Origin: Thiomonas sp. FB-6
GTDB taxonomy: Bacteria; Pseudomonadota; Gammaproteobacteria; Burkholderiales; Burkholderiaceae_C
Length of the DNA: 37,698 bases
Direction: 5' to 3'
NCBI RefSeq assembly: GCF_000377645.1
Contig: NZ_KB898501.1
Span: 1-37,698, forward strand
Every line of letters begins with the position of its first letter. Positions within the stretch are counted from its first letter, which is position 1. Below are positions 392-22,402 of this stretch, piece after piece. A program made the translations under genes and the position numbers. Under the pieces are notes generated by a model, which worked only from the letters and a program-made list of their open reading frames with translations, did not search any database and had not been told where the DNA came from.

Positions 392-1258
392 TCAGACGTC
401 GAGCACGGCTGCGTCGACGGGCAGCTCGGGGTCGCGCGACCATTCGTTCCAGGAGCCGAAATAGATGCGCACCTTGTCGAATCCGGCTTGCTTGAGGGCG
501 AGGTACGTGTTCGACGCGCGCGCGCCCTTGAAGCAGTAGAGGTAGATGTCGTCGTCCGCGTCGATGTCCGCGGTGGCGCATTCGGCGCGTACCTCGGCCG
601 GCGATTTGATGACCGGGCCGTGGGGGCCTGGCTTCATGAATCGGTACCACTCGATCCAGCGTGCCCCGGGCAGGCGGCCCTTGCGGGGCGCGAAGTCCTT
701 GCCGTAGGGCGACGAGCTCTCCCCGATCCATTCGTCGATGTCCCGCACGTCGAGCAGCACCTTTTCGGTGCCCAGCGCGGCTTGCACATCCTCCTTGGTG
801 AGCATTACGTCGGCCGTCGGGAGATGCTTTGGGAAAGCCTTGGGCGTGGCTTGCGGAATCTCCGTGGTGCTCGGCAGGCCGGCGGCTTTCCAGGCCGAGA
901 AGCCTCCGTTGAGAACATGGACCTGGGGGTAGCCCAGCCAGGTGAGCAGGTAGTAGCCGCGGCAGGACTGGCCGTAGCCCGTGTGCATGGCGTCCTCGTA
1001 GAGCACGGCGCCTTCGGCGCCGGACAGTCCGATGGCCCCGAAGTGGTTGGCGAAGCTGTCCTTGAGTTCCTGCAGCCCTTGGGGCGAGGAGGTGGCGAGG
1101 AAGGTGAAGATGTCGCGCAGGTTGAAGGCGCCGGGAATGTGCCCCGCCGCGTAGGCCTCCGGATCGCGTGTATCGATGAGCACGATGGACCCCTCCGACT
1201 GGCGGGCGGCGAGCTCTTCGGGAGACAACAGCACAGGCAGGATGGTCGGAGTCGTCAT
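392..1258 (-). CDS. Two-domain rhodanese (thiosulfate/3-mercaptopyruvate sulfurtransferase family)
   Basis: This 288-residue protein has two tandem rhodanese domains, about residues 8-130 and 148-285, the usual size of the SseA/thiosulfate sulfurtransferase family. The N-terminal domain has DTRDPEAYAAGHIPGA. The C-terminal domain has LLDVRDIDEW and the active loop CFKGAR, with the presumed persulfide-forming Cys242. Family members move sulfane sulfur from thiosulfate or mercaptopyruvate to thiols or to cyanide, giving thiocyanate. The loop is not the textbook CRxGVR/CGSGVT, so the donor cannot be assigned. A perfectly spaced sigma-54 promoter lies 45 bases upstream on the same strand. The gene is divergent from a sigma-54 activator and a cyanase operon, which suggests a role in cyanide, thiocyanate or cyanate metabolism (inference). 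The start is the ATG at 1258; longer in-frame extensions cross the promoter. Confidence 0.9.
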   Translation of the reverse strand: MTTPTILPVLLSPEELAARQSEGSIVLIDTRDPEAYAAGHIPGAFNLRDIFTFLATSSPQGLQELKDSFANHFGAIGLSGAEGAVLYEDAMHTGYGQSCRGYYLLTWLGYPQVHVLNGGFSAWKAAGLPSTTEIPQATPKAFPKHLPTADVMLTKEDVQAALGTEKVLLDVRDIDEWIGESSSPYGKDFAPRKGRLPGARWIEWYRFMKPGPHGPVIKSPAEVRAECATADIDADDDIYLYCFKGARASNTYLALKQAGFDKVRIYFGSWNEWSRDPELPVDAAVLDV

Positions 1259-1303
1259 GGCGTCCTCGCAGCTTGAAAGGGTGGATCGGATGCCCTCGCT
1301 CTT

Positions 1304-1319
1304 GCAATGGATGTGCCAG
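1304..1319 (-). promoter_or_regulatory. Sigma-54 promoter of the rhodanese gene
   Basis: The minus strand reads CTGGCACATCCATTGC, matching the consensus YTGGCAC-N5-TTGC. The invariant GG (1317-1316) and GC (1305-1304) are exactly 10 bases apart. Transcription would start near 1292, about 35 bases before the ATG at 1258. Such a promoter needs an enhancer-binding activator, and one is encoded by the divergent neighbour. Confidence 0.8.
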
Positions 1320-1337
1320 ACAGGCTTGTAGCCCTGC

Positions 1338-1383
1338 GCCCCGGGCCTGCAGGGGGCGGAGCCCCCAGCGCCCGGCCCGGGGC
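1338..1383. repeat. Nested GC-rich inverted repeat between divergent promoters
   Basis: GCCCCGGGCC (1338-1347) pairs perfectly with GGCCCGGGGC (1374-1383). Inside lies a second hairpin, GGGGGC-GGA-GCCCCC (1352-1366). It sits between the two divergent sigma-54 promoters. It could be a repeat element, or a structure that insulates the promoters or helps DNA bending. No function can be assigned. Confidence 0.6.
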
Positions 1384-1402
1384 CGGTCAATCTGTGTGCG
1401 CT

Positions 1403-1413
1403 TTGTCTGCAAT
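1403..1413. promoter_or_regulatory. Candidate activator-binding site (TTGTCTGCAAT)
   Basis: TTGTCTGCAAT shares the pattern TTGTNNGCAAT with two tandem copies at 3186-3207 ahead of the third sigma-54 promoter. It lies about 75-80 bases upstream of the predicted activator transcript start and about 110 bases upstream of the rhodanese transcript start. That is normal enhancer distance for both, so one site could serve the divergent pair. The assignment is inferred from recurrence and position only. Confidence 0.5.
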
Positions 1414-1457
1414 GTGCTCGTTGGCGGCAGCGGCCGGCGCGTCCGCGCGAGGTCCGA

Positions 1458-1473
1458 CTGGCACCGAAATTGC
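1458..1473 (+). promoter_or_regulatory. Sigma-54 promoter of the activator gene
   Basis: CTGGCACCGAAATTGC matches the -24/-12 consensus, with GG (1460-1461) and GC (1472-1473) separated by 10 bases. The predicted start is near 1485, leaving a leader of about 55 bases. The palindrome TTGCTAGCAA (1471-1480) overlaps the -12 element. It has the same TTG-N4-CAA shape as the candidate enhancer sites, so self-limiting autoregulation is possible (inference). Confidence 0.75.
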
Positions 1474-1538
1474 TAGCAAATTGGCAGCCTTTGGCGGTTC
1501 TGCTCAGGCCCGCGGGTGTCCCGCGTACTCGGAGCGTG

Positions 1539-3185
<1,647 letters not shown>

Positions 3186-3191
<6 letters not shown>

Positions 3192-3207
3192 GCAATTTGT
3201 GCGCAAT
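3186..3207. promoter_or_regulatory. Tandem candidate activator-binding sites (TTGTNNGCAAT x2)
   Basis: TTGTGAGCAAT (3186-3196) is followed directly by TTGTGCGCAAT (3197-3207), a direct repeat of exactly 11 bases, or one helical turn. Each copy is a TTG-N4-CAA dyad. They overlap the activator stop codon and lie about 85-105 bases upstream of the predicted operon transcript start, which is typical enhancer spacing. A third copy is at 1403-1413. Confidence 0.55.
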
Positions 3208-3264
3208 GCCTGCCAGGGCTTCCCGGACGACGGCCTAAGTCCTTGATTCACCGATGGAGCAGTC

Positions 3265-3280
3265 CTGGCACGCGGCTTGC
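3265..3280 (+). promoter_or_regulatory. Sigma-54 promoter of the flavoprotein-cyanase operon
   Basis: CTGGCACGCGGCTTGC is an essentially perfect match to YTGGCACG-N4-TTGC, with GG (3267-3268) and GC (3279-3280) 10 bases apart. The predicted transcript start is about 3292, some 44 bases before the first gene, which has a strong AGGAGG ribosome-binding site at 3324-3329. Confidence 0.85.
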
Positions 3281-3335
3281 GAAGCAGGGGGCAAGGGTCG
3301 CATCCGGGCCCGATGGGCCACACAGGAGGATTGCC

Positions 3336-4547
3336 ATGCCGGTTTCAGCAGCCGTCGTTTCGAACACGGTGTCGGAGCTTTCCGGAATTGCAGCGCAGGG
3401 GGGTGTCGCGGATCCGGTGGTCGTGGCGGTGCGCGAACTGGTCCGGACACGCCTGGCGCCCAAGGTGCTCGACGTCGATCTGAAGGCCGAGTACCCCGAG
3501 GACCTGCTGCGGGAGATCGGCGCGATGGGCGGCTACCGGGGCGCGGCGAGCCCGGCCCACGGGGGCGACGGCCGCGGGCTGCGCCAGGTCGTGCAGGTGA
3601 TGGAGGAGGCGTCCCGGGAGTGCCTGTCCACCGGGTTCATGATCTGGTGCCAGACGGCCTGCGCCCGCTACATCACCCTGTCGGACAACGCCTGGGTGAA
3701 GGAGCGCTACCTGCCGCGCATCGTCTCCGGCGAACTGCTGGCCGGCACCGGGTTGTCCAACACCATGAAGTCCGCCGACACCATCGAGGACTACCGGCTG
3801 TGCGCGCGCCGGGCCGAGGGCGGATACGTAATCAACGGCGTGCTTCCCTGGGTGTCGAACCTCGGGCCCGACCATGTGTTCGTCACCGGCTGCCCGGTGC
3901 GCGGTGCCGACGGGGAGCTGGAGGGGCTGGCCTTCGTGCTCGTGGACTGCGGGCAACCGGGTTTCCGACTCGTGGACTGCGCGCGGTTCATCGGGCTGGA
4001 CGGCACGCGCACCCTGGCCTGCCAGTTCAAGGAGTGCTTCGTTCCCGACGCCATGGTGCTGGCGCAGCCCAGCCGGTCGGCCGCCTATCTCGCCCGCATC
4101 AAGCCCGGCATGATCCTCGCGCAAATGGGCATGGGCCTGGGGTTGATCGACGGCTGCGCGCTGCTGATGGCGCAGTCCAACCGCACGCATGGGCACGTCA
4201 ACCAGTATCTGGACGATCAGGTGGGCGAGGTGGTCGAGGCCCTCGAACAGGCGCGCGCCACCACCTACGAACTGTGCGACGCCGTGGATGCCGACCCCGA
4301 TGGGGGCGCCGCCCGCACCCTCGAGGTGCTCAAGCTGCGCCTGGCCGGTGGCGAGCTGTCGGTGCGCGCTGCGCACGCCGCGATGCTGCACCAGGGCGCC
4401 AAGGGCTACCTGGTGCGCAATGCCGCGCAGCGGCGCCTGCGCGAGGCGTATTTCGTGGCCATTGTCACGCCGGCCACCAAGCATCTGCGGCGGGAGATTG
4501 CCCGCATGGGCTGCGCGACGCCGGCCGTGCCGGCCCGCGCGGCCTGA
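3336..4547 (+). CDS. Acyl-CoA-dehydrogenase-fold flavoprotein (possible flavin monooxygenase)
   Basis: This 403-residue protein has the three-part acyl-CoA dehydrogenase fold: a helical N-terminal domain, a middle beta domain (about 135-235, including YVINGVLPWVSN) and a C-terminal helical bundle. The FAD/substrate segment of ordinary dehydrogenases is changed to GTGLSNTMKSAD. The family also contains oxygen-using flavoenzymes such as DszC, SfnC-like monooxygenases and nitroalkane oxidase. No acyl-CoA pathway genes are nearby. Instead rubredoxin follows 22 bases later and a rubredoxin reductase closes the operon, so it is best read as a redox enzyme fed by rubredoxin and acting on a small nitrogen compound (inference). 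It is the first gene after a sigma-54 promoter. The start is the ATG at 3336 behind AGGAGG. A true dehydrogenase is the alternative. Confidence 0.75.
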   Translation: MPVSAAVVSNTVSELSGIAAQGGVADPVVVAVRELVRTRLAPKVLDVDLKAEYPEDLLREIGAMGGYRGAASPAHGGDGRGLRQVVQVMEEASRECLSTGFMIWCQTACARYITLSDNAWVKERYLPRIVSGELLAGTGLSNTMKSADTIEDYRLCARRAEGGYVINGVLPWVSNLGPDHVFVTGCPVRGADGELEGLAFVLVDCGQPGFRLVDCARFIGLDGTRTLACQFKECFVPDAMVLAQPSRSAAYLARIKPGMILAQMGMGLGLIDGCALLMAQSNRTHGHVNQYLDDQVGEVVEALEQARATTYELCDAVDADPDGGAARTLEVLKLRLAGGELSVRAAHAAMLHQGAKGYLVRNAAQRRLREAYFVAIVTPATKHLRREIARMGCATPAVPARAA

Positions 4548-4569
4548 GCCCGAACCCAGGAGAAACACC

Positions 4570-4764
4570 ATGACCGAAGCGCTTGCGACCCTGACCGAGA
4601 CGACCCCGTGGGTGTGCCTGGTCTGCAACTGGATCTACGACCCCGCGGTGGGGGCGCCCGAGCACGGCATCGCGGCGGGCACGGCCTTTGCCGACATTCC
4701 GGAGGACTGGTACTGCCCGGAATGCGGCGTCACCAAGGCCGACTTCGAGCCGATGTTGCCTTGA
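4570..4764 (+). CDS. Rubredoxin
   Basis: This 64-residue protein has the two iron-binding knuckles of rubredoxin: C16-L-V-C19 and C49-P-E-C52, with the conserved Y-D-P (23-25), F-x-D-I-P-E-D-W (40-47) and the start of the second knuckle, YCPECG. It carries one electron on a mononuclear Fe(Cys)4 centre. A short N-terminal extension of about 13 residues precedes the domain. It sits between the flavoprotein and the transporter, while a matching NAD(P)H-dependent reductase is encoded at 9121-10290 in the same operon. This supports an NAD(P)H to reductase to rubredoxin to flavoenzyme chain. The ATG at 4570 follows CAGGAGA. Confidence 0.95.
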   Translation: MTEALATLTETTPWVCLVCNWIYDPAVGAPEHGIAAGTAFADIPEDWYCPECGVTKADFEPMLP

Positions 4765-4853
4765 GCCCCGCCGGCGGGCCGGGCCGACGCGCCCGGCGCG
4801 ACGGATGCCTTCCTGAGCGATTTTCCTGACCGATGTTTTCGATGGGACCTGCG

Positions 4854-6224
4854 ATGAACCCGAACGATGACCCGTTTGAGCCCTCCGTGCGCCTTCCCGG
4901 CTGCAGCTGTGGCCGCCACGCCGACCAGGCGGCGCATGACGCGCAGAGCGGCCGCCCCATCGACCACGGCGACCTCGGGCAGCTCACCCGCCGGGGGCTC
5001 GAGGGCGCGGTGATGCGCGCCTTGTTCCCGAGCGACGCGCAGCGGCGGCGTTTCCTGCGCGCCGTGGGCAGCGGCACCGCCCTGGCGGCGATCTCCCAGC
5101 TGATTCCCTTCGGCATGCTGCAAGCCCAGGCCGCCGAGCCGGCGGCGCCGCCGGAAAAGCGGAACCTGAAGATCGGCTACCTCCCGATCACCTGCGCCAG
5201 CCCCCTTCTGATCGCGCAGCAGAACGGTTACTTCCACGACGCCGGCCTGCAGGTCGAGCTGCTGAAGACGCCGGGCTGGGCGCTGGTGCGGGACAAGACC
5301 ATCAACCGCGACTTCGACGCCGCGCAGATGCTCGCGCCGATGCCCGTGTCCATGGCGCTCGGCGCCGGGTCGAGCGCTGCGCCCACCGTGGCCGCCCTGA
5401 TGGACAACGTCAACGGCAGCGCCATCACCCTGGCGATGCGCCACAAGGATCGCCGCGATCCCGCGCAGTGGAAGGGATTCCGCCTGGCCATCCCCTTCGA
5501 CTACTCCATCCACAACTTCCTGCTGCGCGAATACCTTGCCCAGCACGGGCTCGATCCCGACCACGACGTGCAGCTGCGCGTTATGGCGCCTCCGGACATG
5601 CTGGCCAACCTGGCCGGCGGCAACCTCGACGGTTTCATCGTCGCCGAGCCCTTCAACCAGCGGGCGGTGTTCGAGGGCATCGGCTTCATCCATACCCTCA
5701 GCGTGGACCTCTGGCGCGGGCACCCCTGCTGCACCCTCGCGATGGAGGCCGACTTCGCGAGCCGGCAGCCCAACACCTATGCGGCGCTGGTCCGCGCCAT
5801 GCTGCGCTCGGCGGCCTACCTGAACGTGCCCGCCAACCGCGACGCCATCGTCGACACCCTGGCGCAGCCGAAGTTCCTCAACCAGCCGAAGATCGTGGTC
5901 AAGCAGGTGCTTACCGGCACCTATGCCGACGGGCTCGGCCAGGTGCGCAGCGAACCGCAACGAATCGGCTTCCAGCCCTTCCCGTGGCCGTCGATGGCAG
6001 TGTGGATCCTGGCGGAGATGAAACGCTGGAACTACATCAAGGGCGACGTGGACTACCGGCAGATCGCCGAGCGCGTGTTCCGTGCCACCGACGCGCGCGC
6101 CGCCATGCGCAAGGCGGGCATGCATGCGCCGGACGAGGACATGCAGGACTACCAGATCCTCGGCCGCAAGTTCGACCCCAAGAAGCCCGACGCCTACCTC
6201 AAGGCGCTGAGCGCGAAGGCCTGA
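4854..6224 (+). CDS. NrtA/CynA-like ABC transporter substrate-binding protein, Tat signal
   Basis: This protein of about 456 residues belongs to the nitrate/bicarbonate/cyanate-binding family (NrtA, CmpA, CynA). The ligand-binding part starts at about residue 103 (NLKIGYLPITCASPLLIAQQ). A twin-arginine motif, RRRFLRA (64-70), precedes a hydrophobic stretch ending at AQAAEP, so it is probably exported folded. Unusually, about 60 residues precede the Tat motif and include C17-S-C19-G-R-H22. This may be a metal-binding or cofactor motif, or it may mean that the true start is further in. ATGs at 4833, 4842 and 4854 are all possible and none has a strong ribosome-binding site. The permease and ATPase follow directly. 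Cyanase downstream suggests cyanate or a cyanate precursor as ligand (inference). Confidence 0.85.
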   Translation: MNPNDDPFEPSVRLPGCSCGRHADQAAHDAQSGRPIDHGDLGQLTRRGLEGAVMRALFPSDAQRRRFLRAVGSGTALAAISQLIPFGMLQAQAAEPAAPPEKRNLKIGYLPITCASPLLIAQQNGYFHDAGLQVELLKTPGWALVRDKTINRDFDAAQMLAPMPVSMALGAGSSAAPTVAALMDNVNGSAITLAMRHKDRRDPAQWKGFRLAIPFDYSIHNFLLREYLAQHGLDPDHDVQLRVMAPPDMLANLAGGNLDGFIVAEPFNQRAVFEGIGFIHTLSVDLWRGHPCCTLAMEADFASRQPNTYAALVRAMLRSAAYLNVPANRDAIVDTLAQPKFLNQPKIVVKQVLTGTYADGLGQVRSEPQRIGFQPFPWPSMAVWILAEMKRWNYIKGDVDYRQIAERVFRATDARAAMRKAGMHAPDEDMQDYQILGRKFDPKKPDAYLKALSAKA

Positions 6225-6234
6225 GGGGGCGGCC

Positions 6235-7083
6235 ATGACATCCCGCAACGCTTCGCGCCTTCAGTCCGCGGCGCTGACCCTGCTGATCGCCGCCATGCTG
6301 CTGGCGATCTGGCAGTTCCTGACCCTGCCCAAGCCGCCCAAGCTGCCGCCCGGCGTCAGCGCCGAGTACGCCGAGCTGATGGGCCAGGGCAGCGCCACCC
6401 GGCAGGGCTTTCCCACCCCGGCGCAGGTGATCCATACCTTCGTGCAGGAGTTGCGCAACCCCTTCTACGACCACGGGCCCAACGACAAGGGCATCGGCCT
6501 GCAGCTCGGCTATTCGCTGGCCAGGGTCGCCGGAGGTTTCGCGCTGGCGGTGCTGGCGGCACTGCCGCTGGGCTTCGTGATCGGCATGTTCCCGGTGCTC
6601 TACCGGGCCTTCGATCCCTTCATCCAGCTCCTCAAGCCGATCTCTCCGCTGGCCTGGATGCCTATCGCGCTGTACACGCTCAGGGACGCCAATGTCAGTG
6701 CGGTGTTCGTGATCTTCATCTGCTCGGTCTGGCCCATGCTGATCAACACGGCCTTCGGTGTGGCGGGCGTGCGGCGCGAATGGCTGAACGTGGCGCGCAC
6801 GCTGGAGCTCAGGCCCATGCGCAGGGCCTTCGGGGTGATCCTGCCCGCGGCGGCGCCGACCATCCTCACCGGCATGCGCATTTCCATGGGCATTGCCTGG
6901 CTGGTGATCGTGGCGGCGGAGATGCTGGTGGGCGGCACCGGCATCGGCTACTACGTCTGGAACGAGTGGAACAACCTGGCTCTGCCCAGCATGCTGTTCG
7001 CGATTTTCCTGATCGGCCTGGTCGGCATGCTGCTCGACCTGTCCTTCGCGCGTCTGCAGCGTGCGGTGACCTACGCGGAGTGA
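6235..7083 (+). CDS. ABC transporter permease, NrtB/SsuC type
   Basis: This is a 282-residue inner-membrane protein with about six hydrophobic segments. The first is at about 12-29, and the rest lie from about 85 onward. The periplasmic loop of about 50 residues after the first segment is longer than in many relatives. The cytoplasmic ATPase-contact (EAA-like) loop is seen as NVARTLELRPMRRAFGVILPA. It starts 10 bases after the binding-protein gene and 4 bases before the ATPase gene, so the three make one transporter. It belongs to the nitrate/sulfonate/taurine permease family. The substrate cannot be read from the sequence. Confidence 0.9.
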   Translation: MTSRNASRLQSAALTLLIAAMLLAIWQFLTLPKPPKLPPGVSAEYAELMGQGSATRQGFPTPAQVIHTFVQELRNPFYDHGPNDKGIGLQLGYSLARVAGGFALAVLAALPLGFVIGMFPVLYRAFDPFIQLLKPISPLAWMPIALYTLRDANVSAVFVIFICSVWPMLINTAFGVAGVRREWLNVARTLELRPMRRAFGVILPAAAPTILTGMRISMGIAWLVIVAAEMLVGGTGIGYYVWNEWNNLALPSMLFAIFLIGLVGMLLDLSFARLQRAVTYAE

Positions 7084-7087
7084 TGCC

Positions 7088-8014
7088 ATGAGCCCGGCCT
7101 TTGTGCGCGTCGAAGAGCTGTGCAAGCGCTATCCGGATGCCAGGGGGCGCTTGGGGGAAGCGGTGTTCGAGCATGTCCATTTCGAAGTCGAGCGCGGCGA
7201 ATTCATCGCCGTGCTCGGCCATTCGGGCTGCGGCAAGACGACCATCCTCAACATCCTCGCCGGCCTGGAGCAGGCGTCCTCCGGCGTGGTGCTGATGGAA
7301 GGGCACGAGGTGTCGGGGCCCTCGCTGGACCGCGGCGTGGTGTTCCAGGGCCACGCGCTAATGCCTTGGCGCACGGTGTTGGGCAACGTCGCCTTCGCGG
7401 TGCAGTCGCGCTGGCCGCGGTGGACGCGCGAGCAGGTGCGGGAGCACAGCATGCGGCAACTGGAGATGGTCGGCATGGCGGGCGCCGCGGACAAGAAGCC
7501 GCATCAGTTGTCCGGTGGCATGAAGCAGCGCGTGGGCATCGCGCGGGCCTTCGCGATCCAGCCCAAGATGCTGCTGCTCGACGAGCCCTTCGGTGCGCTG
7601 GACGCGCTGACCCGCGGCACCATCCAGGACGAGTTGCTGCGCATCGTGCAGGCCACGCGACAGACGGTGTTCATGATCACCCACGACGTGGACGAGGCGA
7701 TCCTGCTGGCCGACCGCATCGTGCTGATGAGCAACGGCCCGCTGGCCAGGATCGCCGAGATCGTGGAGATCACCATGCCGCGCGAGCGCACGCGTGCCGG
7801 GATGCACCACGACCCGCAGTACTACCGCATCCGCAACCACCTGGTGGACTTCCTCGTGAACCGATCCAGGGGCTATGCGGCCGACGGGGAGCTCGCCGTG
7901 CTGCACGACCCGCGCCAACCGCCCGTCGTGCGTCCGGGGCTGGTCGTCGAAGAGGCCCGCGACGAGCCGGGCGGCGGCGATGTTCCGCGTCTCCGGCAGG
8001 TCATCAATCTGTAG
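7088..8014 (+). CDS. ABC transporter ATP-binding protein, NrtD/SsuB type
   Basis: The 308-residue ATPase has all motifs: Walker A GHSGCGKTT, Q-loop VVFQGHALMPW, signature LSGGMKQR, Walker B MLLLDEPFGALDA and the switch His in ITHDVDEA. After the domain there is a C-terminal tail of about 50 residues (GELAVLHDPRQ onward) without a recognised domain. It energises the importer formed with the two preceding genes. Cyanase begins 25 bases downstream. Confidence 0.92.
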   Translation: MSPAFVRVEELCKRYPDARGRLGEAVFEHVHFEVERGEFIAVLGHSGCGKTTILNILAGLEQASSGVVLMEGHEVSGPSLDRGVVFQGHALMPWRTVLGNVAFAVQSRWPRWTREQVREHSMRQLEMVGMAGAADKKPHQLSGGMKQRVGIARAFAIQPKMLLLDEPFGALDALTRGTIQDELLRIVQATRQTVFMITHDVDEAILLADRIVLMSNGPLARIAEIVEITMPRERTRAGMHHDPQYYRIRNHLVDFLVNRSRGYAADGELAVLHDPRQPPVVRPGLVVEEARDEPGGGDVPRLRQVINL

Positions 8015-8039
8015 TTCTCACCCAGCAAGGAGCCAGACC

Positions 8040-8483
8040 ATGAATCGAAACGATGTGACGGAAATGATCGTCGCGACCAAGATCAGCAAGGGCCTCAAGT
8101 GGGCCGACGTCGCGGCCAGGATCGGCCTGTCCAAGGAGTGGGTCACGGCCGGATGCCTGGGCCAGATGACCTTCGACGCCAGCCAGGCGGCCATCCTGGG
8201 GGAGGTGTTCGACCTTCCGGAGCAGGCCGTGGCGCTGCTGCAGCAGGTTCCCTACAAGGGCTCGCTGCCGACGGCCGTTCCCACCGATCCGCTGATCTAC
8301 CGCTTCTACGAACTGGTCAACGTGTACGGGAGCACATTCAAGGCCCTGATCCACGAGGAATTCGGGGACGGCATCATGTCCGCTATCGATTTCCGTATGG
8401 ATCTGCAGCGCGAGGCGGACCCGAAGGGCGACCGCGTGAACATCGTGATGTCGGGCAAGTTCCTGCCCTACAAGACCTATTGA
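8040..8483 (+). CDS. cynS: Cyanase (cyanate hydratase)
   Basis: Cyanase converts cyanate and bicarbonate to two CO2 and ammonia in the cytoplasm. The 147 residues match the family length. The N-terminal half is the helical DNA-binding-like domain. The C-terminal half carries the active-site block PTDPLIYRFYELVNVYG and FGDGIMSAIDF. By alignment with the E. coli enzyme the catalytic residues are Arg88, Glu91 and Ser114, all present. The start is the ATG at 8040 behind AAGGAG. In most bacteria cynS lies with cynTS/cynABD under a LysR regulator. Here it sits in a sigma-54 operon with a flavoprotein and a rubredoxin chain, so cyanate may be made by the operon and not only imported. Confidence 0.97.
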   Translation: MNRNDVTEMIVATKISKGLKWADVAARIGLSKEWVTAGCLGQMTFDASQAAILGEVFDLPEQAVALLQQVPYKGSLPTAVPTDPLIYRFYELVNVYGSTFKALIHEEFGDGIMSAIDFRMDLQREADPKGDRVNIVMSGKFLPYKTY

Positions 8484-8524
8484 TCGGCGCGTGCTTGCTC
8501 GATCGTTCCAACCCGGAGATTTCC

Positions 8525-9076
8525 ATGCTTGCTGACACGAAGACCGAAACCCAGTATCTGCGCCCGATCGACCGCGAGGGCCTGCTCAAGTTCGCCCAGG
8601 CGGGACGGGACAACCCCGAGCGCAAGGGCACGAACAAGGTGCATACCGTGATGCAGGGGCAGTTCCGCTCGTGGAGCTTCGTGGGCACCCACAACCCGGT
8701 CGTGGTGGATGAGCCTTTGCACCTCTTTGGCGAGAACACCGAGCCCGCGCCGGGCGAGATCGCGTTGTCCGCGCTGGGCGGTTGCCTGTCGGTGGGCATC
8801 ACCGCGGTGGCGACGGAGCGGCAGGTGCGCCTGTCTCGCCTGGAGATCTTTCTGGAGGCGGACATCGGCAACTCGGCGGCGTGGGGTGCCGGAGGCGCGG
8901 ACCGCAAGCCGGCGCAGATGGGCTTTCAGGAAATCCGCGTGAAGGTCATCGTCGAGGGCGACGCCTCGCGCGAGGAACTCGACGACATCGTGCAGACCGC
9001 CAACTACTACTCCCCGGTGGCCAACACCATGCGCAATCCGGTGCCCTTCACCATCGCAAGGGCGCAGGCGGCCTGA
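8525..9076 (+). CDS. OsmC-family protein lacking the second redox cysteine
   Basis: This 183-residue protein has the OsmC/Ohr fold, with the first conserved cysteine in SALGGCLSVGITAVA (Cys87). Family members reduce organic hydroperoxides through two cysteines. At the second position this protein has YYSPVANTM, with Ser163 in place of Cys, and Cys87 is its only cysteine. It may therefore use a different reductant, bind a thiol-reactive intermediate, or have lost peroxidase activity. It lies 41 bases after cyanase and 44 bases before the rubredoxin reductase. It may deal with reactive by-products of the operon's oxidation (inference). Confidence 0.85.
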   Translation: MLADTKTETQYLRPIDREGLLKFAQAGRDNPERKGTNKVHTVMQGQFRSWSFVGTHNPVVVDEPLHLFGENTEPAPGEIALSALGGCLSVGITAVATERQVRLSRLEIFLEADIGNSAAWGAGGADRKPAQMGFQEIRVKVIVEGDASREELDDIVQTANYYSPVANTMRNPVPFTIARAQAA

Positions 9077-9120
9077 GCGCGTTGCCGGCGCTTCGGGCCG
9101 TCCCACTCCTGCATACGCCC

Positions 9121-10290
9121 ATGACTCGGCGCATCGTCATCATCGGCAGCGGCATGGCGGGCATCTCCCTGGCGCGCGAGTTGCGCAGGCTCGACGACCG
9201 GGCAGAGATGGTGCTGCTGAGCCGGGAGCCGGGAGACTTCTATTCCAAGCCTGCGTTGTCCAACGCGCTGGCCGGCGGGAAGTCCGCCGCGGCGCTGGTC
9301 CTTACCCCGGCGGCCAGGCTGGCGCAGGACCTGGGCGTGCGCATCGTCGGCCATACCGAGGTCGACGCCGTCGATACCGGCGCGAGGGAGGTGCACGCGA
9401 CGGCCGGCTCATTCGCCTACGACGCGCTGGTGCTGGCCATGGGCGCCAGCCAGCGTCGGCTGCCGATGGCCGGGGAGGAGGCGGACGCCATGCTGTCCGT
9501 CAACAACCTGGCCGATTACGCCCGTTTCCGCGAGCGCCTGCAGGGCGCGAGGCGTGTCGCCATCATTGGCGCGGGACTGATCGGATGCGAATTCGCCAAC
9601 GACCTGCGCCTGGCGGGCATCGAGGTCGATGTCCACGACGTGGCCGCCCAGCCGCTCGGCCGCCTGCTTCCCGCGCGAGCCGCCGACATGTTCCGGCGGC
9701 GCCTCGAGGCGGCCGGAGTGCGATTTCACCTCGGCACGACCGTGGTGCGTATCGATCCCGCGGAACCAGGCCATGTGCTGAGCACCAGCACGGGAACTTC
9801 CGCGCGCTACGACCTGGTGCTTTGCGCGATCGGGCTGCAGCCGAACATCGGCCTCGCCCGCGACGCGGGACTGGACACGGGCACCGGCATTCGAACCGAT
9901 CGTTGGCTTCGAAGCTCGGTGGCGGACGTCTATGCGCTGGGTGACTGCGCGGAAGTGGAGGGGCTCGTGCTGCCCTACGTGCTCCCGATCACGCATGGCG
10001 CCAAGGCGCTTGCCCGAACCCTGACCGGCGAGCCCACGCCCGTGCAGTACCCGGCCATGCCGGTGGTCGTGAAGACGCCCGCGTGCCCGGCCGTCATCTG
10101 CCCCCCATTGCAGCCAGGTGGCGCATGGTCCGTGGCGGTCGATGGCGACGGCTTGAGAGCCATTTATCTCGGCGCGGACGGCGAGACTATGGATGGCTTC
10201 GTTCTGCTGGGGAGCGCCGTGAAGGAGCGCATGTCCTTGGCGGCGCGGGTGCCCGGGCCGCTGGCCGGGACCGTGTTGCCCATGCTCTAG
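9121..10290 (+). CDS. Rubredoxin-NAD(P)+ reductase-like FAD oxidoreductase
   Basis: The 389-residue flavoprotein has two dinucleotide-binding folds: FAD at the N-terminus (RRIVIIGSGMAG) and NAD(P) in the middle (VAIIGAGLIGCEFA). The second FAD contact is VYALGDCAEV, followed by a C-terminal domain. The pattern, including YSKPALSNALAGGKS, matches the rubredoxin reductase group (AlkT/RubB type). It would pass electrons from NAD(P)H to the rubredoxin encoded at 4570-4764, although five genes lie between them. It is the last gene of the operon. A general ferredoxin reductase role is possible, but the shared operon favours rubredoxin. Confidence 0.9.
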   Translation: MTRRIVIIGSGMAGISLARELRRLDDRAEMVLLSREPGDFYSKPALSNALAGGKSAAALVLTPAARLAQDLGVRIVGHTEVDAVDTGAREVHATAGSFAYDALVLAMGASQRRLPMAGEEADAMLSVNNLADYARFRERLQGARRVAIIGAGLIGCEFANDLRLAGIEVDVHDVAAQPLGRLLPARAADMFRRRLEAAGVRFHLGTTVVRIDPAEPGHVLSTSTGTSARYDLVLCAIGLQPNIGLARDAGLDTGTGIRTDRWLRSSVADVYALGDCAEVEGLVLPYVLPITHGAKALARTLTGEPTPVQYPAMPVVVKTPACPAVICPPLQPGGAWSVAVDGDGLRAIYLGADGETMDGFVLLGSAVKERMSLAARVPGPLAGTVLPML

Positions 10291-10531: not shown

Positions 10532-10547
10532 GTGGCACGACGTTTGC
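10532..10547 (+). promoter_or_regulatory. Sigma-54 promoter of the second transporter operon
   Basis: GTGGCACGACGTTTGC matches the consensus, with GG (10534-10535) and GC (10546-10547) 10 bases apart. The predicted transcript start is about 10559, giving a leader of about 50 bases before the ATG at 10610. Confidence 0.75.
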
Positions 10548-10559
10548 GTGAACCCTTGC

Positions 10560-10593
10560 ATCAAAAACCGGGAAACCCTGTCCTGGTTTTGAT
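10560..10593 (+). promoter_or_regulatory. Hairpin at the extreme 5' end of the transcript
   Basis: ATCAAAAACC (10560-10569) pairs with GGTTTTGAT (10585-10593), with one bulged A and a 15-base loop. It begins almost exactly at the predicted transcript start and ends just before the ribosome-binding site (CGGGAG). A 5'-terminal stem often protects an mRNA from decay; control of translation is the alternative. Neither is shown. Confidence 0.45.
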
Positions 10594-10609
10594 CCACGGG
10601 AGTCCTGCC

Positions 10610-11617
10610 ATGAAGCTTCGTTCCTTCCGCACCCCGCGCGTCTACGCAGGCCTGGCCTGTGCGGCCGCGGCCCTGGGCAGCGCGCACGCCGACGAGGTGG
10701 TGCGCTTCGGCGTGCAGCCGGCGACCCAGCCCATCTACATCGCGCGCGCGGCCGGGCTGCTCGCGCCCATCGAATCGCGCTTCCACGTCAAGATCCGCTT
10801 CTACAACTTCTCCTACGGCGCCCCCGAGAACCAGGCGATGGCCGCGGGCGACCTCGACCTCGCCTCGGCCGGCATGGGCCCCGCGGTGGTGGCCGCGGCG
10901 CGTCTGCCGGCCGAGCTGCTGGCCATCACCATCCTCGAGCAGACCGCGATCATCGTGCCCGCGGCATCGTCCATCCATACCCTGGCCCAGCTCAAGGGCA
11001 AGCGCATCGCCTATCCCGGCGAGGGCTCGCAGCAATACCCGCTGCTGCTCAAGGCGCTGCAGCAGGCCGGGTTGAGCGAGCACGACGTGACCCTGTTCAA
11101 GACCAAGGGTTCGGACGTATCCACGCTGGTCGAGGACGACAGCGTGGACGCCGGCATCACCTGGGACCCGCACGTGTCGCAGGCGCTGGCCTCGGGCAAG
11201 GCACGCGTGCTGGCGAAGGCTGAGTCCATCCTGCCCCTGAAGGACGGCCACTACATCGGCAACGGCGTCTACGGACGCACCGCCTTCGTCGACGCCCATC
11301 CTGCGCTGGTCGAAGCCATCCTGGGGGCGATTGTCCAGGCCGAACGCCTGGTGCTGGCGCACCCGGACGAGGCGGTGGCCATGTGGAGCCGGCAGATCGG
11401 CTTCCCGTCGCAGGTGATCCACTATTCGCTACAGGAAGGCATCTCCGTGTACGACGCCGACATCGTGCCCACCCCCAGCGTGCTCGATCAGTACACCCGC
11501 TTCCTGCAGGCGGCGCACATCCTGCAGCCCGACGACAAGCCACGCATCGCACCGCAATACGCCGAGCAGGCCGAGCACGCCGCGCAGGCGACGCCGACGC
11601 TTGGAGCGAAGCCATGA
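10610..11617 (+). CDS. SsuA/TauA-like ABC transporter substrate-binding protein
   Basis: The 335-residue periplasmic protein has a typical signal peptide with predicted cleavage at about residue 28 (GSAHA-DEVV). The mature part starts VVRFGVQPATQPIYIARAAGLL, the pattern of the nitrate/sulfonate/taurine-binding superfamily. It differs clearly from the NrtA-like protein at 4854-6224: it lacks a Tat motif and an N-terminal extension. It is the first gene of an operon with permease, ATPase, an amidase and an IclR regulator, so its ligand is probably a nitrogen compound with an amide bond, or one related to it (inference). Confidence 0.87.
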   Translation: MKLRSFRTPRVYAGLACAAAALGSAHADEVVRFGVQPATQPIYIARAAGLLAPIESRFHVKIRFYNFSYGAPENQAMAAGDLDLASAGMGPAVVAAARLPAELLAITILEQTAIIVPAASSIHTLAQLKGKRIAYPGEGSQQYPLLLKALQQAGLSEHDVTLFKTKGSDVSTLVEDDSVDAGITWDPHVSQALASGKARVLAKAESILPLKDGHYIGNGVYGRTAFVDAHPALVEAILGAIVQAERLVLAHPDEAVAMWSRQIGFPSQVIHYSLQEGISVYDADIVPTPSVLDQYTRFLQAAHILQPDDKPRIAPQYAEQAEHAAQATPTLGAKP

Positions 11618-11650
11618 GCGCCGCGCACGGCCGCTCCGAAGGGGCGCTCC

Positions 11651-11665
11651 ACTCCCTCGGGGAGT
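11651..11665 (+). other. Intercistronic stem-loop
   Basis: ACTCCC-TCG-GGGAGT forms a perfect 6-bp stem in the 73-base gap between the binding-protein and permease genes. Hairpins here often stabilise the upstream message or lessen read-through, so that more binding protein than permease is made. It has no U-tract. Confidence 0.4.
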
Positions 11666-11690
11666 CCAGAGTAGCGAGGAGGGCAGTTCC

Positions 11691-12457
11691 ATGAGTGCGC
11701 CCGCGCCGCGCTGGCTGGCGGCCTGGCCCTATGTCGCGGCCGCCTCCGTCGTGCTGCTGGCCTGGCAACTCGTGGTGCTGACCACGCACCCGAGCCAGGC
11801 CGTGCTGCCCACGCCTGGGGAGACACTGCGCACGCTATGGTCGCTGGCGCTATCCGGGCAGCTCTGGGTCGATGCTGGCGCCAGCCTCGGGCGCGTGCTC
11901 GTCGCCTGGATGCTGGGTGCCGTCGTGGCGGTGCCGCTGGGCCTGCTGCAAGGCGTGCATCCCCGGCTGCGGCGCGTGCTCGAACCTCTGTTCGAGCTGT
12001 TCCGTCCCATCTCACCGCTGGCCTGGATTCCCATGGCCATCCTCTGGTTCGGGGTCGGCGAGACGGGAAAGATCTTCATCCTGTTCATCGCCACCTTCTT
12101 CCCCATCCTTCTCAACACCCTCTCGGGCGTGCAGGGGGTCGATCCGGTACTCGTGCGCGCTGGGCGCGTGCTCGGCTGCGACAACGATGCGCGGCTGTTC
12201 CGCCGCGTCATCCTGCCGGCGGCGATGCCGCAGATCCTGGTCGGGCTGCGCGTCGCCTTCGGCACCGGCTGGGCGGCAATCATCGCCGCCGAACTGGTCG
12301 CCGCCAACAAGGGTCTGGGCTACCTGATTTCCAACGGCATGGAGATCCTGCGCTCGGACCAGGTGCTGGCGGGGATGATCGTGATCGCCGTGCTCGGCCT
12401 GCTCATCGATACCGCGTTTCGCCGGCTGGGGCGCTGCCTCGGCGTGGAGGATTCCTG

Positions 12458-12458
<1 letters not shown>
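11691..12458 (+). CDS. ABC transporter permease, SsuC/TauC type
   Basis: This 255-residue inner-membrane protein has about six hydrophobic segments (for example 13-31, 65-85 and 100-150). The ATPase-contact loop is GRVLGCDNDARLFRRVILPAAMPQ. The conserved PISPLAWIPMAILWFG stretch is shared with the permease at 6235-7083, which suggests common ancestry of the two transporters. The ATG at 11691 follows GAGGAGGG. The last base of its stop codon is the first base of the ATPase start codon. Confidence 0.9.
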
Positions 12459-13297
<839 letters not shown>

Positions 13298-13348
13298 AGC
13301 CCGCACGCCGCACAGGCTTCCTTCCGCCCAGAACCCGCCGAACCCGCC

Positions 13349-14674
13349 ATGAGTCTGTCCGAACCCGCTTGCCTGAACCGCGACCCGCACGCCGCTGCAT
13401 CCACCACCGCGCCATGCGGTGACACCGCGGGCGCCGCCGTGCGCGCGGTGGGCGCGGCGCTGGAGCGTATCGCGCGGCGCGACCGCTCCCTACGGGCCTT
13501 CGTGCATGTCGCGCCGGCCCGCGCGCTGGCGCACGCCGCCCAACTGGACCGCCTCGCCCCCGTGGCGCACGGGCCGCTGCACGCCCTGCCGCTGGCCGTG
13601 AAGGAGGTGTTCGAGGTCCAAGGCCTGCCATGGAGCGCCGGCTCCGCGCTGTATCGCGAACGCCTGGGATCTGCCACCGCGCCGATGGTCGCCGCGCTGG
13701 AGCGCGCCGGCGCGGTCGTGCTGGGCATCACCGCATCGTCCGAATTCGCCATCGCCCAGCTGCCGCCGACCACCCATCCGCTGGACCCGCTACGCGGCCC
13801 AGGCGCGTCCTCCAGCGGCTCTGCCGCCGCGGTCGGCGCCGGACTGGTACCGCTGGCGCTGGGCACGCAGACCTTGGGCTCGATCATTCGCCCCGCCGCT
13901 TACTGCGGTGCCGTCGGCTTCAAGCCCAGCCACGCGCGCTACCCCATGCTCGGCGTGGTGCCGCTGTCCGAGAGCCTGGACGATCCCGGGCTGATCGCCG
14001 ACAGCGCGGCGCGCCTGTGCGCGGTGGACGAGGTGCTGGCGCCGGCCGCGCAAGCCTCTGCCGGCGCGCTCACCGGCGTGTGCCTGGTGGCGCCCTGGTT
14101 CCCAGAGGCCGTAGCACCGGCCGTACGCGCGGCGCTCGGCGAGGCGGCCGCGCGCCTGCGCGGCCTGGCCCCGGCCTGGCGCGAGACCTCGGTTCCGCCA
14201 TGGGTCGCCGCCCGCGAACAACAGCTCGTGGACACGCTGCTGGTGCGCGGGCTCGCCCGCCTCCACGGTGAAGCCCTGCGCGCCGCGCCGCCCGGGATGG
14301 TGTCCGCGCGGCTGCTGCGGCTGCTGGGCGAAGGCGAAGCCCTACCAGCGTCGCGCATGGCAGCCGCGCGGCGTGGGCAGCAGGCTGTGGCCGAAGCGCT
14401 GCACGAGTGGCTGCGCCCCGGCGAGGTGGCGGTGACGGTGGCCACCGTCGACGTCGCGCCGCTGCTGGGCCACGGCAGCGGCTCGCGCGCGCCGCAACGC
14501 CTGTGGAGCCTCGCGGGCATGCCCGCGCTGTGCTTGCCCATGGCGGTGCGCGCCGGCACGCTGCCGATCGGAATCCAACTCGTGGCGCGCCGGGGGGAGG
14601 ACCGGCTGCTGCTGGAGTTCGCCGCGCGGGCCCAGGCGTTGCTGGCGGCGCCCGTGCCGCGAGACCTGCCATGA
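13349..14674 (+). CDS. Amidase-signature hydrolase
   Basis: This 441-residue enzyme belongs to the amidase-signature family (AtzF, allophanate hydrolase, GatA, biuret-type relatives). The Ser-cisSer-Lys triad is visible: Lys85 in LAVKEVFEVQG, the cis-Ser in GASSSGSAAA (about 154-156) and the nucleophile Ser178 in GTQTLGSIIRPA. These enzymes hydrolyse amides to acid plus ammonia or amine. Residues 1-30 are less conserved, so the start is only probable. It is encoded after an ABC importer and overlaps the IclR regulator, suggesting that it degrades the imported compound in the cytoplasm. The substrate cannot be predicted. Confidence 0.88.
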   Translation: MSLSEPACLNRDPHAAASTTAPCGDTAGAAVRAVGAALERIARRDRSLRAFVHVAPARALAHAAQLDRLAPVAHGPLHALPLAVKEVFEVQGLPWSAGSALYRERLGSATAPMVAALERAGAVVLGITASSEFAIAQLPPTTHPLDPLRGPGASSSGSAAAVGAGLVPLALGTQTLGSIIRPAAYCGAVGFKPSHARYPMLGVVPLSESLDDPGLIADSAARLCAVDEVLAPAAQASAGALTGVCLVAPWFPEAVAPAVRAALGEAAARLRGLAPAWRETSVPPWVAAREQQLVDTLLVRGLARLHGEALRAAPPGMVSARLLRLLGEGEALPASRMAAARRGQQAVAEALHEWLRPGEVAVTVATVDVAPLLGHGSGSRAPQRLWSLAGMPALCLPMAVRAGTLPIGIQLVARRGEDRLLLEFAARAQALLAAPVPRDLP

Positions 14675-17655: not shown

Positions 17656-19059
17656 TCAACTCGTCGTGTCCCACCAGAGTTCGCGCATCGCATCGTCGAA
17701 GCGGTGTGCGATCTCCTCGGCGCGCGGGTGCGCGCCTTCGCGCAGCACCCAGCGGCCAGCGACCAGCACGTCGCGCCAGGCCGGGGCCGGGCTGGAGAAC
17801 ACCAGAGCGTCGAGTTGCTGCGCAGGCGCGATCCCGAGGAGACTCGACGCCCGGGAATCGAGTACAAGCGCGTCGGCGCGCGCCCCGGTACACAGCCCCC
17901 AGGCGCCGAGCCCGGCGCTGCGGCCGCTGCCAGCCTGCACGCGCGACCACAGGCGCTCCGCGGTGGAGGGTTGCGCGAGCTGCGGGGCCGCGCTGCTGTT
18001 GCGCTCGCGGCGCAGAAGCCGCTGCGCATAGTCCAGCCAGCGCAGCTCTTCGCGCCAGTCACGATTTACCTGGCTGTCCGAGCCGAGGGTGATGGGCACG
18101 TTGTTGGCGAGCATGTGCGGCAAATCGGGCACACCGTCGCCGAGGTTGGCCTCGGTGCTCGGGCACAGCACGATGCCCGCGCCGGCAGCGGCGGCGGCGT
18201 CGATCTCGGACGGCGCAGCATGCGTGGCGTGGACCAGTTGCCAGCGTGGATCGAGCAGGCCCTGCTCCGCCAACCAGGCAATGGGACGTTTCCCCGTGGC
18301 CGCCACGCATTCATCGACCTCCGCGGTCTGCTCGCTCACGTGGACGTGGATCGGGCCATCGAAGCCGTCCGCCGCCCGTGCCAGCGCGACGATGGATTCG
18401 GTGCTCGCGGCGCGCAGGGAATGCACGGCAAGCCCGGCGCGCAGCAGCGGATGTCGATGCGCCCCGATGGCGCGCGCCATCTCCCATGCGCTCGCCGCAT
18501 CGCAGGCGAAGCGGCGCTGGTCGGCTCGCAGCGTAGGCTGTCCGAAGCCCGCGCGCTCGTACAGGGTGGGCATCAAGGTCAGCCCGATACCCGCCTGCCC
18601 AGCGGCATCGCACAGCGCAAGACCCATTTCCAGCAGGTCCGGGTAGGGGCGGCCGCTCGGGTCGCGGTGCAGGTAGTGGAATTCGCACACCTGCGTGTAC
18701 CCACCGTGCAGCAGTTCGAGATACAGCATCGCGGCCACTGCCCGCAACTGTTGCGGCGTGATGCGCAGCGCGGCCTGGTACATGCGGTCCCGCCATGACC
18801 AGAAGGTATCGGCGGCGTCCTGGCGACGTTCGGCGAGGCCGGCGAAGGCGCGTTGGAAGGCGTGGCTGTGGGCGTCCACCAGCCCGGGCAGCAACGCGCC
18901 GTCAATGCGGCGCGCCTGCGGCGGCGGCGCGACTCGCGCGCGCACCTCCGACCAGTTGCCCTCCTCGTCGATGCGCAGCAGCACGTCTTCGTGCCAGCCT
19001 TCGGGCAGCCAGGCGCGCGGGGCCCACAGCAGGCGATCGGACTCAGCGGACGTCGGCAT
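17656..19059 (-). CDS. hutF: Formimidoylglutamate deiminase
   Basis: HutF hydrolyses N-formimino-L-glutamate to N-formylglutamate and ammonia, in the five-step branch of histidine degradation. The 467 residues fit the family. As an amidohydrolase it has the metal motif H64-S-H66 in LVDAHSHAFQRAF, further metal ligands in HVSEQTAEVDE and HATHAAPSE, and LGSDSQVNRDWREELR with the metal-binding Asp. It is the last gene of the minus-strand hut operon and overlaps hutG by 17 bases. With hutG next to it, the formylglutamate route is complete from urocanate to glutamate and formate. Confidence 0.95.
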   Translation of the reverse strand: MPTSAESDRLLWAPRAWLPEGWHEDVLLRIDEEGNWSEVRARVAPPPQARRIDGALLPGLVDAHSHAFQRAFAGLAERRQDAADTFWSWRDRMYQAALRITPQQLRAVAAMLYLELLHGGYTQVCEFHYLHRDPSGRPYPDLLEMGLALCDAAGQAGIGLTLMPTLYERAGFGQPTLRADQRRFACDAASAWEMARAIGAHRHPLLRAGLAVHSLRAASTESIVALARAADGFDGPIHVHVSEQTAEVDECVAATGKRPIAWLAEQGLLDPRWQLVHATHAAPSEIDAAAAAGAGIVLCPSTEANLGDGVPDLPHMLANNVPITLGSDSQVNRDWREELRWLDYAQRLLRRERNSSAAPQLAQPSTAERLWSRVQAGSGRSAGLGAWGLCTGARADALVLDSRASSLLGIAPAQQLDALVFSSPAPAWRDVLVAGRWVLREGAHPRAEEIAHRFDDAMRELWWDTTS

Positions 19060-19855: not shown

Positions 19856-19857
19856 GT

Positions 19858-21066: not shown

Positions 21067-21067
21067 C

Positions 21068-22386: not shown

Positions 22387-22402
22387 GGGATGATCTTACC
22401 GG

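What the first reader, a model, noticed from the sequence alone, without database searches (positions are those of the whole stretch)
392..10290. Sigma-54-controlled flavoprotein-rubredoxin-cyanase system
Seen: one operon joins an acyl-CoA-dehydrogenase-fold flavoprotein, rubredoxin, an NrtABC-type importer, cyanase, an OsmC-like protein and a rubredoxin reductase. It is flanked by a NifA-like activator and a rhodanese with matching promoters. Known: cyanase removes cyanate, and enzymes with the ACAD fold include oxygen-using monooxygenases. Inference: a compound with a C-N (or S-C-N) unit is imported and oxidised to cyanate, then turned into CO2 and ammonia. Cyanide, thiocyanate, cyanamide or a formamide-like molecule are candidates. 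I do not recognise this as a described pathway; it differs from Nit1C cyanotrophy clusters and from classic cynTSX.
Basis: partly seen in the sequence, partly recalled or inferred. Interest (0 to 1): 0.88.

Follow-up and report, generated by a model that had tools for sequence, protein, structure and literature searches.

The report
Probable flavoprotein route for thiocyanate breakdown
A widespread bacterial gene set, seen here in a Thiomonas genome, probably takes in thiocyanate, turns it into cyanate with an unusual flavin enzyme and then into ammonia; if so, it is a new way for bacteria to use thiocyanate.

Summary
In detail: sigma-54 activator, ACAD-fold flavoprotein, rubredoxin, NrtABC/CynABD-type importer, cyanase, OsmC-like protein and rubredoxin reductase lie in one run beside a divergent rhodanese, with sigma-54 sites. 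Relatives in Proteobacteria and cyanobacteria keep much of the set. A sigma-54-driven cynABDS is published (PMC6627978); I found no paper on the flavoprotein-rubredoxin part. The flavoprotein lacks the ACAD catalytic glutamate (Thr in 68, Ser in 1 of 69) and has an invariant cysteine. Some relatives use another importer whose binding protein elsewhere sits beside thiocyanate hydrolase: of 17 such proteins in 369 genomes, 8 lie with the flavoprotein, 7 with the hydrolase, 2 with neither, and the hydrolase ones group with the flavoprotein ones in a tree. No biochemistry was done. O2 use and electron direction are inferred, and the window itself has the cyanate-type importer, so the inference passes through the shared enzyme.

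The parts
392..1258 (-). two-domain rhodanese (sulfurtransferase), divergent
   Evidence: PF00581 4.8e-38; best PDB match 1e0c sulfurtransferase; homologue in 20 of 73 loci
1303..1318 (-). sigma-54 promoter-like site of the rhodanese, perfect match to TGGCACRNNNNTTGCW
1459..1474 (+). sigma-54 site upstream of the activator gene, 1 mismatch
1539..3191 (+). GAF-AAA+-Fis sigma-54 activator (NifA-like in sequence but below the NifA cut-off; CynF-like in its setting)
   Evidence: PF00158, PF01590, PF02954; nifA 480.2 bits vs cut-off 528.85
3266..3281 (+). sigma-54 site before the flavoprotein operon, 1 mismatch
   Evidence: 36 of 49 loci with the activator have such a site within 900 bases upstream of the ACAD gene, 1 of 24 without it
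3336..4547 (+). ACAD-fold flavoprotein, proposed thiocyanate-to-cyanate enzyme; no ACAD catalytic Glu, invariant Cys
   Evidence: PF02771 7.6e-17; model pLDDT 93.8; Foldseek ACADs TM about 0.8
4570..4764 (+). rubredoxin
   Evidence: PF00301 1e-21; four Cys conserved in 34 homologues
4854..6224 (+). CynA/NrtA/CmpA-type binding protein (C-type importer)
   Evidence: PF13379 9.5e-74; best PDB matches are of the NrtA/CmpA family
6235..7083 (+). importer permease
   Evidence: TIGR01183 213.5 bits, cut-off 209.05
7088..8014 (+). importer ATPase
   Evidence: TIGR01184 307.5 bits, cut-off 291.8
8040..8483 (+). cyanase CynS
   Evidence: PRK02866 225.9 bits (cut-off 150), TIGR00673 174.2 (cut-off 113.3)
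8525..9076 (+). OsmC-like protein with a single conserved cysteine
   Evidence: PF02566 2.5e-19; Cys87 is the only Cys conserved at 95% in 101 homologues
9121..10290 (+). rubredoxin reductase
   Evidence: NorW 299.1 bits (below its cut-off 392), Rbx_binding PF18113 5.2e-23
10533..10548 (+). sigma-54 site before the next importer operon, 1 mismatch; membership of the system uncertain

Best explanation
The operon lets the cell use thiocyanate (and cyanate) as nitrogen and perhaps sulfur source. The ABC importer brings in the pseudohalide anion. The ACAD-fold flavoprotein, which is not an ordinary acyl-CoA dehydrogenase, converts thiocyanate to cyanate, the sulfur leaving as sulfane sulfur that is taken over by cysteine proteins: the flavoprotein's own invariant Cys, the single-cysteine OsmC-like protein and, where present, the rhodanese. 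Cyanase turns cyanate and bicarbonate into ammonia and CO2. Most likely electrons run NAD(P)H - rubredoxin reductase - rubredoxin - flavin and O2 is activated. A sigma-54 activator of the CynF kind switches the operon on. Shown here: gene content, conservation, sigma-54 sites, loss of the catalytic Glu, an importer shared with thiocyanate hydrolase clusters. Inferred: substrate, product, electron direction, sulfur relay. The confidence covers thiocyanate-to-cyanate by this flavoprotein with either electron direction.
For: Importer link: binding proteins of the T-type (TauT-like) importer of flavoprotein clusters are 54-57% identical to those next to thiocyanate hydrolase, CynA-type and background ones 28-32%; a clade of support 1.0 holds the 7 hydrolase-cluster proteins and 43 of 45 T-type ones, with none of 65 C-type and none of 19 background proteins. 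Hydrolase identity, checked on one of nine (L202): 383 bits to T. thioparus thiocyanate hydrolase gamma 2dd4, best nitrile hydratase 195; the other eight are closely alike. 0 of 9 nitrile-hydratase control loci carry such a protein (two of these contigs are under 4.2 kb). Specificity: of 17 T-type proteins in 16 of 369 genomes, 8 sit with the flavoprotein (one truncated N-terminal part, one more distant), 7 with the hydrolase, 2 with neither. The window's flavoprotein is 57% identical to one of a T-type cluster (L107). Cyanase: 12 of 12 flavoprotein genomes of the class sample have one, 25 of 262 others; in 10 of 12 it lies within 10.5 kb; family sample 29 of 37 against 94 of 262. An importer in 68 of 73 loci speaks for an anion rather than HCN. 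Sulfur oxidisers, among them Guyparkeria sp. SCN-R1, a thiocyanate oxidiser (PMC6504805), are among the 80 kept loci. Against a dehydrogenase: the catalytic Glu is Thr in 68 and Ser in 1 of 69.
Against: The window's operon has only the cyanate-type importer, so the thiocyanate link is by homology of the enzyme. That the importer of hydrolase clusters carries thiocyanate is itself inferred from position. Guyparkeria SCN-R1 also has a copper thiocyanate dehydrogenase (PMC6504805), so its thiocyanate use does not prove this enzyme. Nearest folds and profiles are dehydrogenases; DszC and HsaA monooxygenase models score only about 22 bits. 17 of 73 loci have neither rubredoxin nor reductase. 8 of 37 carriers in the family sample have no detected cyanase, so cyanate cannot be assimilated by cyanase everywhere. 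In two sibling proteins (Agrobacterium, Roseomonas plasmids) the invariant cysteine is missing. Two same-genus genomes (G429, G511) lack the gene.
Confidence: 0.6

Rival explanations
1. Same overall reaction, opposite electron flow (a part of the 0.6 above): the flavoprotein is an O2-independent thiocyanate dehydrogenase (SCN- + H2O to OCN- + S0), passing electrons to rubredoxin as ordinary ACADs pass them to ETF.
For: ACAD dehydrogenase-type fold; the known copper thiocyanate dehydrogenase does this reaction with cytochrome c550 as acceptor (PMC6504805 passage); the invariant cysteine could take the sulfur.
Against: Rubredoxin reductases usually feed electrons towards O2-using or O2/NO-reducing enzymes (recalled).
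Confidence: 0.25
2. Cyanide is the substrate: the flavoprotein is a cyanide monooxygenase (HCN to cyanate), the rhodanese a side route to thiocyanate.
For: Cyanase and, in some loci, rhodanese nearby; a cyanide monooxygenase activity followed by cyanase is recalled from old P. fluorescens biochemistry, no gene known to me.
Against: An importer is kept in 68 of 73 loci though HCN crosses membranes; the importer type is shared with thiocyanate hydrolase; rhodanese in only 20 of 73; among the 31 gene clusters found in 5 or more loci none is a nitrilase or a cytochrome bd type oxidase (Pfam scans of window genes and cluster representatives).
Confidence: 0.12
3. The flavoprotein acts on an organic molecule (organosulfur, nitrile, formamide-like) that releases cyanate or has nothing to do with it, cyanase serving general cyanate use.
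For: The T-type importer belongs to the NitT/TauT family, other members of which take up sulfonates (family names); only 6 of 25 T-type loci have a cyanase nearby.
Against: Cyanase association at genome level and importer sharing with thiocyanate hydrolase.
Confidence: 0.15
4. It is an ordinary acyl-CoA dehydrogenase that happens to lie next to a cyanate operon.
For: Pfam ACAD domains and dehydrogenase-like fold.
Against: Catalytic Glu absent in 69 of 69; no ETF among gene clusters found in 5 or more loci; similar neighbourhoods in Proteobacteria and cyanobacteria.
Confidence: 0.02

Closest known systems
cynFABDS cyanate operon of Pseudomonas pseudoalcaligenes CECT5344 (PMC6627978, passages read)
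   Same: sigma-54 activator, ABC importer CynABD, cyanase, putative sigma-54 promoter
   Different: there cynF is divergent from cynABDS and the cluster as described has no flavoprotein, rubredoxin, OsmC or reductase; it is required for cyanate but not cyanide use
Copper thiocyanate dehydrogenase (TcDH) 'cyanate pathway' (PMC6504805, PMC5744179, passages read)
   Same: the proposed overall reaction, thiocyanate to cyanate plus sulfur; a sigma-54 regulator nearby
   Different: TcDH is a periplasmic copper protein with a seven-bladed propeller, not an ACAD fold; the Thioalkalivibrio that use it lack cyanase activity
Thiocyanate hydrolase (SCNase) clusters (PMC5328954 passage; PDB 2dd4)
   Same: homologous T-type NitT/TauT importer in 7 of 9 loci found; cyanase in 4 of the 9 loci
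   Different: cobalt hydrolase making carbonyl sulfide, not a flavoprotein
ACAD-fold flavin monooxygenases (DszC, HsaA)
   Same: fold superfamily
   Different: about 22 bits only; fed by flavin reductases, not rubredoxin (recalled)
genes of plasmid pANL, Synechococcus elongatus PCC 7942
   Same: ACAD-family gene beside a T-type importer, with the Cys and the TP motif; the plasmid carries many sulfur-related genes (PMC8049743 passages, which do not mention this gene)
   Different: 29% identity; no cyanase or rubredoxin annotated in the 10.9 kb shown

Membership tests
acyl-CoA dehydrogenase (enzyme) | ACAD fold | tested here: met
acyl-CoA dehydrogenase (enzyme) | catalytic Glu in the YEGT segment | tested here: not met
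   Thr 68, Ser 1 of 69; two own-genome ACADs have Glu in that column
acyl-CoA dehydrogenase (enzyme) | catalytic Glu at the isovaleryl-CoA dehydrogenase position | tested here: not met
   the matching position, read off the alignment, is residue 263: L34 A18 T8 G6 N1 M1 S1 of 69; which IVD residue is catalytic is recalled
cynFABDS cyanate assimilation operon | sigma-54 activator, CynABD-type importer, CynS, sigma-54 promoter | tested here: met
cynFABDS cyanate assimilation operon | growth on cyanate | not testable with these tools
classic cynTSX | CynT carbonic anhydrase, CynX, LysR regulator beside cynS | tested here: not met
   none among the ten proteins of 392-10290
Nit1C cyanotrophy cluster | NitC nitrilase | tested here: not met
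   no nitrilase domain in the ten proteins
thiocyanate dehydrogenase (TcDH) | seven-bladed copper beta-propeller | tested here: not met
   predicted fold is ACAD
two-cysteine OsmC/Ohr peroxidase | two catalytic cysteines | tested here: not met
   one Cys (87) conserved in 101 homologues; Ser163-Pro-Val where the second is expected (the two-Cys rule is recalled)
NifA | NCBIfam cut-off | tested here: not met
   480.2 vs 528.85 bits

The most novel reading that the evidence does not exclude
A third, non-homologous class of thiocyanate-degrading enzyme, next to cobalt thiocyanate hydrolase and copper thiocyanate dehydrogenase: an ACAD-fold flavoprotein with an invariant cysteine that makes cyanate in the cytoplasm, usually fed by rubredoxin and always paired with a thiol protein (OsmC-like or AhpD-like) as sulfur acceptor. 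It would be the missing gene set for thiocyanate use as nitrogen or sulfur source in heterotrophs, sulfur oxidisers and cyanobacteria.
Probability: 0.6. Interest if true: 0.86.

Novelty: new variant of a known kind. Interest (0 to 1): 0.78.

Why it matters
[quoted passage not shown] in the passages that I read, the only enzymes named for breaking thiocyanate are the hydrolase and the copper dehydrogenase. If right, a gene set present in 37 of 299 sampled genomes of this family and 12 of 274 of the class gets a function, treatment of thiocyanate and cyanide waste gets new marker genes, and the ACAD fold gains a new chemistry with a new redox partner. It is testable in tractable strains.

Tried and rejected
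Literature: searches (cyanase with rubredoxin and ACAD, or with rubredoxin and thiocyanate) gave 0 papers, one search (3 of cyanase, OsmC, thiocyanate, ACAD) gave 1, where the terms were unrelated. Searches gave lists, of which I read passages of PMC6627978, PMC6504805, PMC5328954, PMC5744179, PMC2907700, PMC6934394 and PMC8049743; none of the passages describes this flavoprotein. The library lacks most subscription journals, so novelty in print is not proven.

The window's second importer (10610-13297) as thiocyanate importer: rejected for its binding protein, 38 bits to the T-type profile against 501-525 for hydrolase-cluster ones; its permease scores higher (270), unexplained. Extra conserved enzymes were sought by clustering neighbours (32 was spoiled by antisense frames and redone): clusters in 5 or more loci beyond the known parts were DUF302, AhpD-like CMD, regulators and genes of local synteny (Pfam). 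Rhodanese and DUF302 as core parts: rejected (20 and 19 of 73). A link between CysR and thiocyanate growth in S. elongatus is recalled only; the papers are not held. The family profile alone does not separate this flavoprotein from ordinary ACADs (an own-genome ACAD, L250, scores 194 bits), so the labels rest on phmmer scores to the window protein (ordinary ones in the neighbourhoods scored 20-53) and, for the aligned 69, on motifs.

Of 128 loci with the flavoprotein 114 remain after removing those 95% alike, and 73 have 6 kb on both sides. Related genomes are not independent, so the Fisher values (6e-12, 1e-6) overstate.
Full report
Where the window lies. The window is a whole 37.7 kb contig of a 4.2 Mb genome. 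The genome is very likely a Thiomonas: a Thiomonas MAG carries the flavoprotein at 94% identity, and the 'same genus' genome G305 has a 2,021,470-base contig, the length of NZ_LT592170.1 of Thiomonas delicata.

The observation. The regulator has GAF, sigma-54-interaction and Fis domains; it resembles NifA most (480 bits) but stays below that family's cut-off. Four sigma-54 sites with at most one mismatch occur in the window, none of 100 shuffles has as many, and they lie before the rhodanese, the regulator, the flavoprotein and the next importer operon. Across relatives, 36 of 49 loci with the regulator have such a site within 900 bases upstream of the flavoprotein gene, against 1 of 24 without it.

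What was known. A sigma-54 regulator, CynABD importer and cyanase make up cynFABDS of P. pseudoalcaligenes, which assimilates cyanate (passages of PMC6627978). So that half of the finding is a known system. The flavoprotein, rubredoxin, OsmC-like protein and reductase are the addition. No paper of the held library contains cyanase, rubredoxin and acyl-CoA dehydrogenase together, or cyanase, rubredoxin and thiocyanate.

Conservation. The flavoprotein is found in 12 of 274 genomes of the class and 37 of 299 of the family at E 1e-60, and in at least 594 stretches of named species genomes, of which 80 were kept, from Thiobacillus, Thioalkalivibrio, Guyparkeria, Halothiobacillus, Thiohalocapsa, Aromatoleum, Azoarcus, methanotrophs, Leptolyngbya-type cyanobacteria, Neisseria and a Ktedonobacter MAG among others. 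In 73 non-redundant loci with 6 kb on each side: OsmC-like 65, AhpD-like 185-residue CMD 8, one or the other 73, both 0; importer binding protein 68 (cyanate-type 47, T-type 25, both 4); cyanase 43; regulator 49; rubredoxin 53 (31 fused to the reductase); rubredoxin or reductase 56; rhodanese 20; DUF302 19. A second, 114-residue CMD protein sits beside OsmC in some betaproteobacteria and is not in those figures. At genome level 12 of 12 carriers in the class sample have a cyanase, against 25 of 262 others; in the family sample 29 of 37 against 94 of 262.

The flavoprotein. AlphaFold2 gives pLDDT 93.8; the best PDB folds are short-chain/isovaleryl-type acyl-CoA dehydrogenases, TM about 0.8. Aligned with two ordinary ACADs of the same genome, the catalytic Glu is replaced by Thr in 68 and Ser in 1 of 69 family members; a Cys (residue 97 of window:3333-4547) is invariant in 69 of 69, a second (106) is in 61. 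It is therefore not an ordinary acyl-CoA dehydrogenase. It scores poorly on known ACAD-fold monooxygenase models, so the oxygenase reading is an inference from its rubredoxin and reductase partners.

The substrate. A published description puts a NitT/TauT importer in thiocyanate hydrolase clusters (passage of PMC5328954). I used that as a test. Of 369 genomes, 24 had an NHase_alpha match; 9 of them form a closely similar group, one member of which, L202, matches thiocyanate hydrolase gamma 2dd4 at 383 bits against 195 for nitrile hydratase. Seven of the nine loci carry a binding protein of the same type as the T-type importer of flavoprotein clusters; the other two loci are a 5.0 kb and an 8.1 kb contig. 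In a tree of 65 cyanate-type, 45 T-type, 19 background and 7 hydrolase-cluster proteins, a clade of support 1.0 holds 43 T-type and the 7 hydrolase ones and nothing else; identities of the hydrolase ones are 54-57% to the T-type and 28-32% to the rest (best hits). None of 9 nitrile hydratase loci has one (L205 was checked against the PDB; two of the contigs are under 4.2 kb). Conversely, a T-type protein searched in 369 genomes gives 17 hits in 16 genomes: 8 beside the flavoprotein, 7 beside thiocyanate hydrolase, 2 beside neither, one of these at a contig end. Two of the eight are weaker cases: in G241 only the N-terminal part of the flavoprotein is on that contig, and the one of G620 is more distant, though it has the TP motif and scores 302 bits to the family profile against at most 194 for the own-genome ACADs tested. 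On plasmids, the three annotated records among the more distant T-type hits that I opened (of 46 records with a hit) also have an ACAD-family gene next to the importer, including plasmid pANL of S. elongatus; a fourth that I opened has no annotation. The window's enzyme is 57% identical to one from a T-type cluster (L107), so the reaction should be the same although the window's importer is of the cyanate type.

Mechanism proposed. Import of thiocyanate; conversion to cyanate by the flavoprotein; sulfur passed as sulfane sulfur to cysteine proteins; cyanase. The partner found in 73 of 73 loci, OsmC-like or AhpD-like, has conserved cysteine in both cases; the OsmC-like one has a single conserved cysteine and Ser-Pro-Val at the usual second site, which fits a sulfur acceptor better than a two-cysteine peroxidase. 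That is inference. The direction of electrons is open: NADH-rubredoxin-flavin-O2 (favoured) or thiocyanate-flavin-rubredoxin.

Weak points. No experiment; importer specificity inferred; 17 of 73 loci without rubredoxin or reductase; 8 of 37 family carriers without cyanase; nearest folds are dehydrogenases; sampling biased to close relatives. I put 0.6 on thiocyanate-to-cyanate by this flavoprotein, with either electron direction.

Verdict. Not a wholly unknown operon, but a widespread and, as far as I could search, unassigned enzyme module joined to a known cyanate operon, with a concrete and easily tested function.

Noticed in passing
window 10533-14674: A second NMT1/SsuA-like importer (binding protein 10610-11617, permease 11691-12458, ATPase 12458-13297) starts behind a one-mismatch sigma-54 site and is followed by an amidase (13349-14674). 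Its permease resembles the T-type permeases (270 bits) though its binding protein does not (38 bits). It may belong to the same regulon.
   Followed up: partly
G000:C4:47236-47436 (L090): A second cyanase gene of the same genome, on another contig, without other genes of the described set nearby except an ABC ATPase of another kind.
   Followed up: partly
window 17656-24235: Amidohydrolases, a GntR/UTRA regulator and urocanase: looks like a histidine utilisation cluster.
   Followed up: no
window 27377-29575: Large protein with a Schlafen group 3 DNA/RNA helicase domain (PF09848, 6.5e-99).
   Followed up: no
L122:11126-11512 and 35 relatives: A DUF302 protein lies between the flavoprotein and rubredoxin in part of the loci (36 of 128 before removing duplicates); no function assigned.
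   Followed up: partly
L266 (plasmid pANL) 3426-7885: ACAD-family gene with a T-type importer next to a DUF4242 gene on the plasmid of S. elongatus PCC 7942 that carries sulfur-regulated genes; a likely model for genetic tests.
   Followed up: partly
L267:5023-6096 and L268:5108-6112: A sibling ACAD subfamily with the T-type importer and a CMD protein but without the otherwise invariant cysteine (Agrobacterium, Roseomonas plasmids).
   Followed up: no
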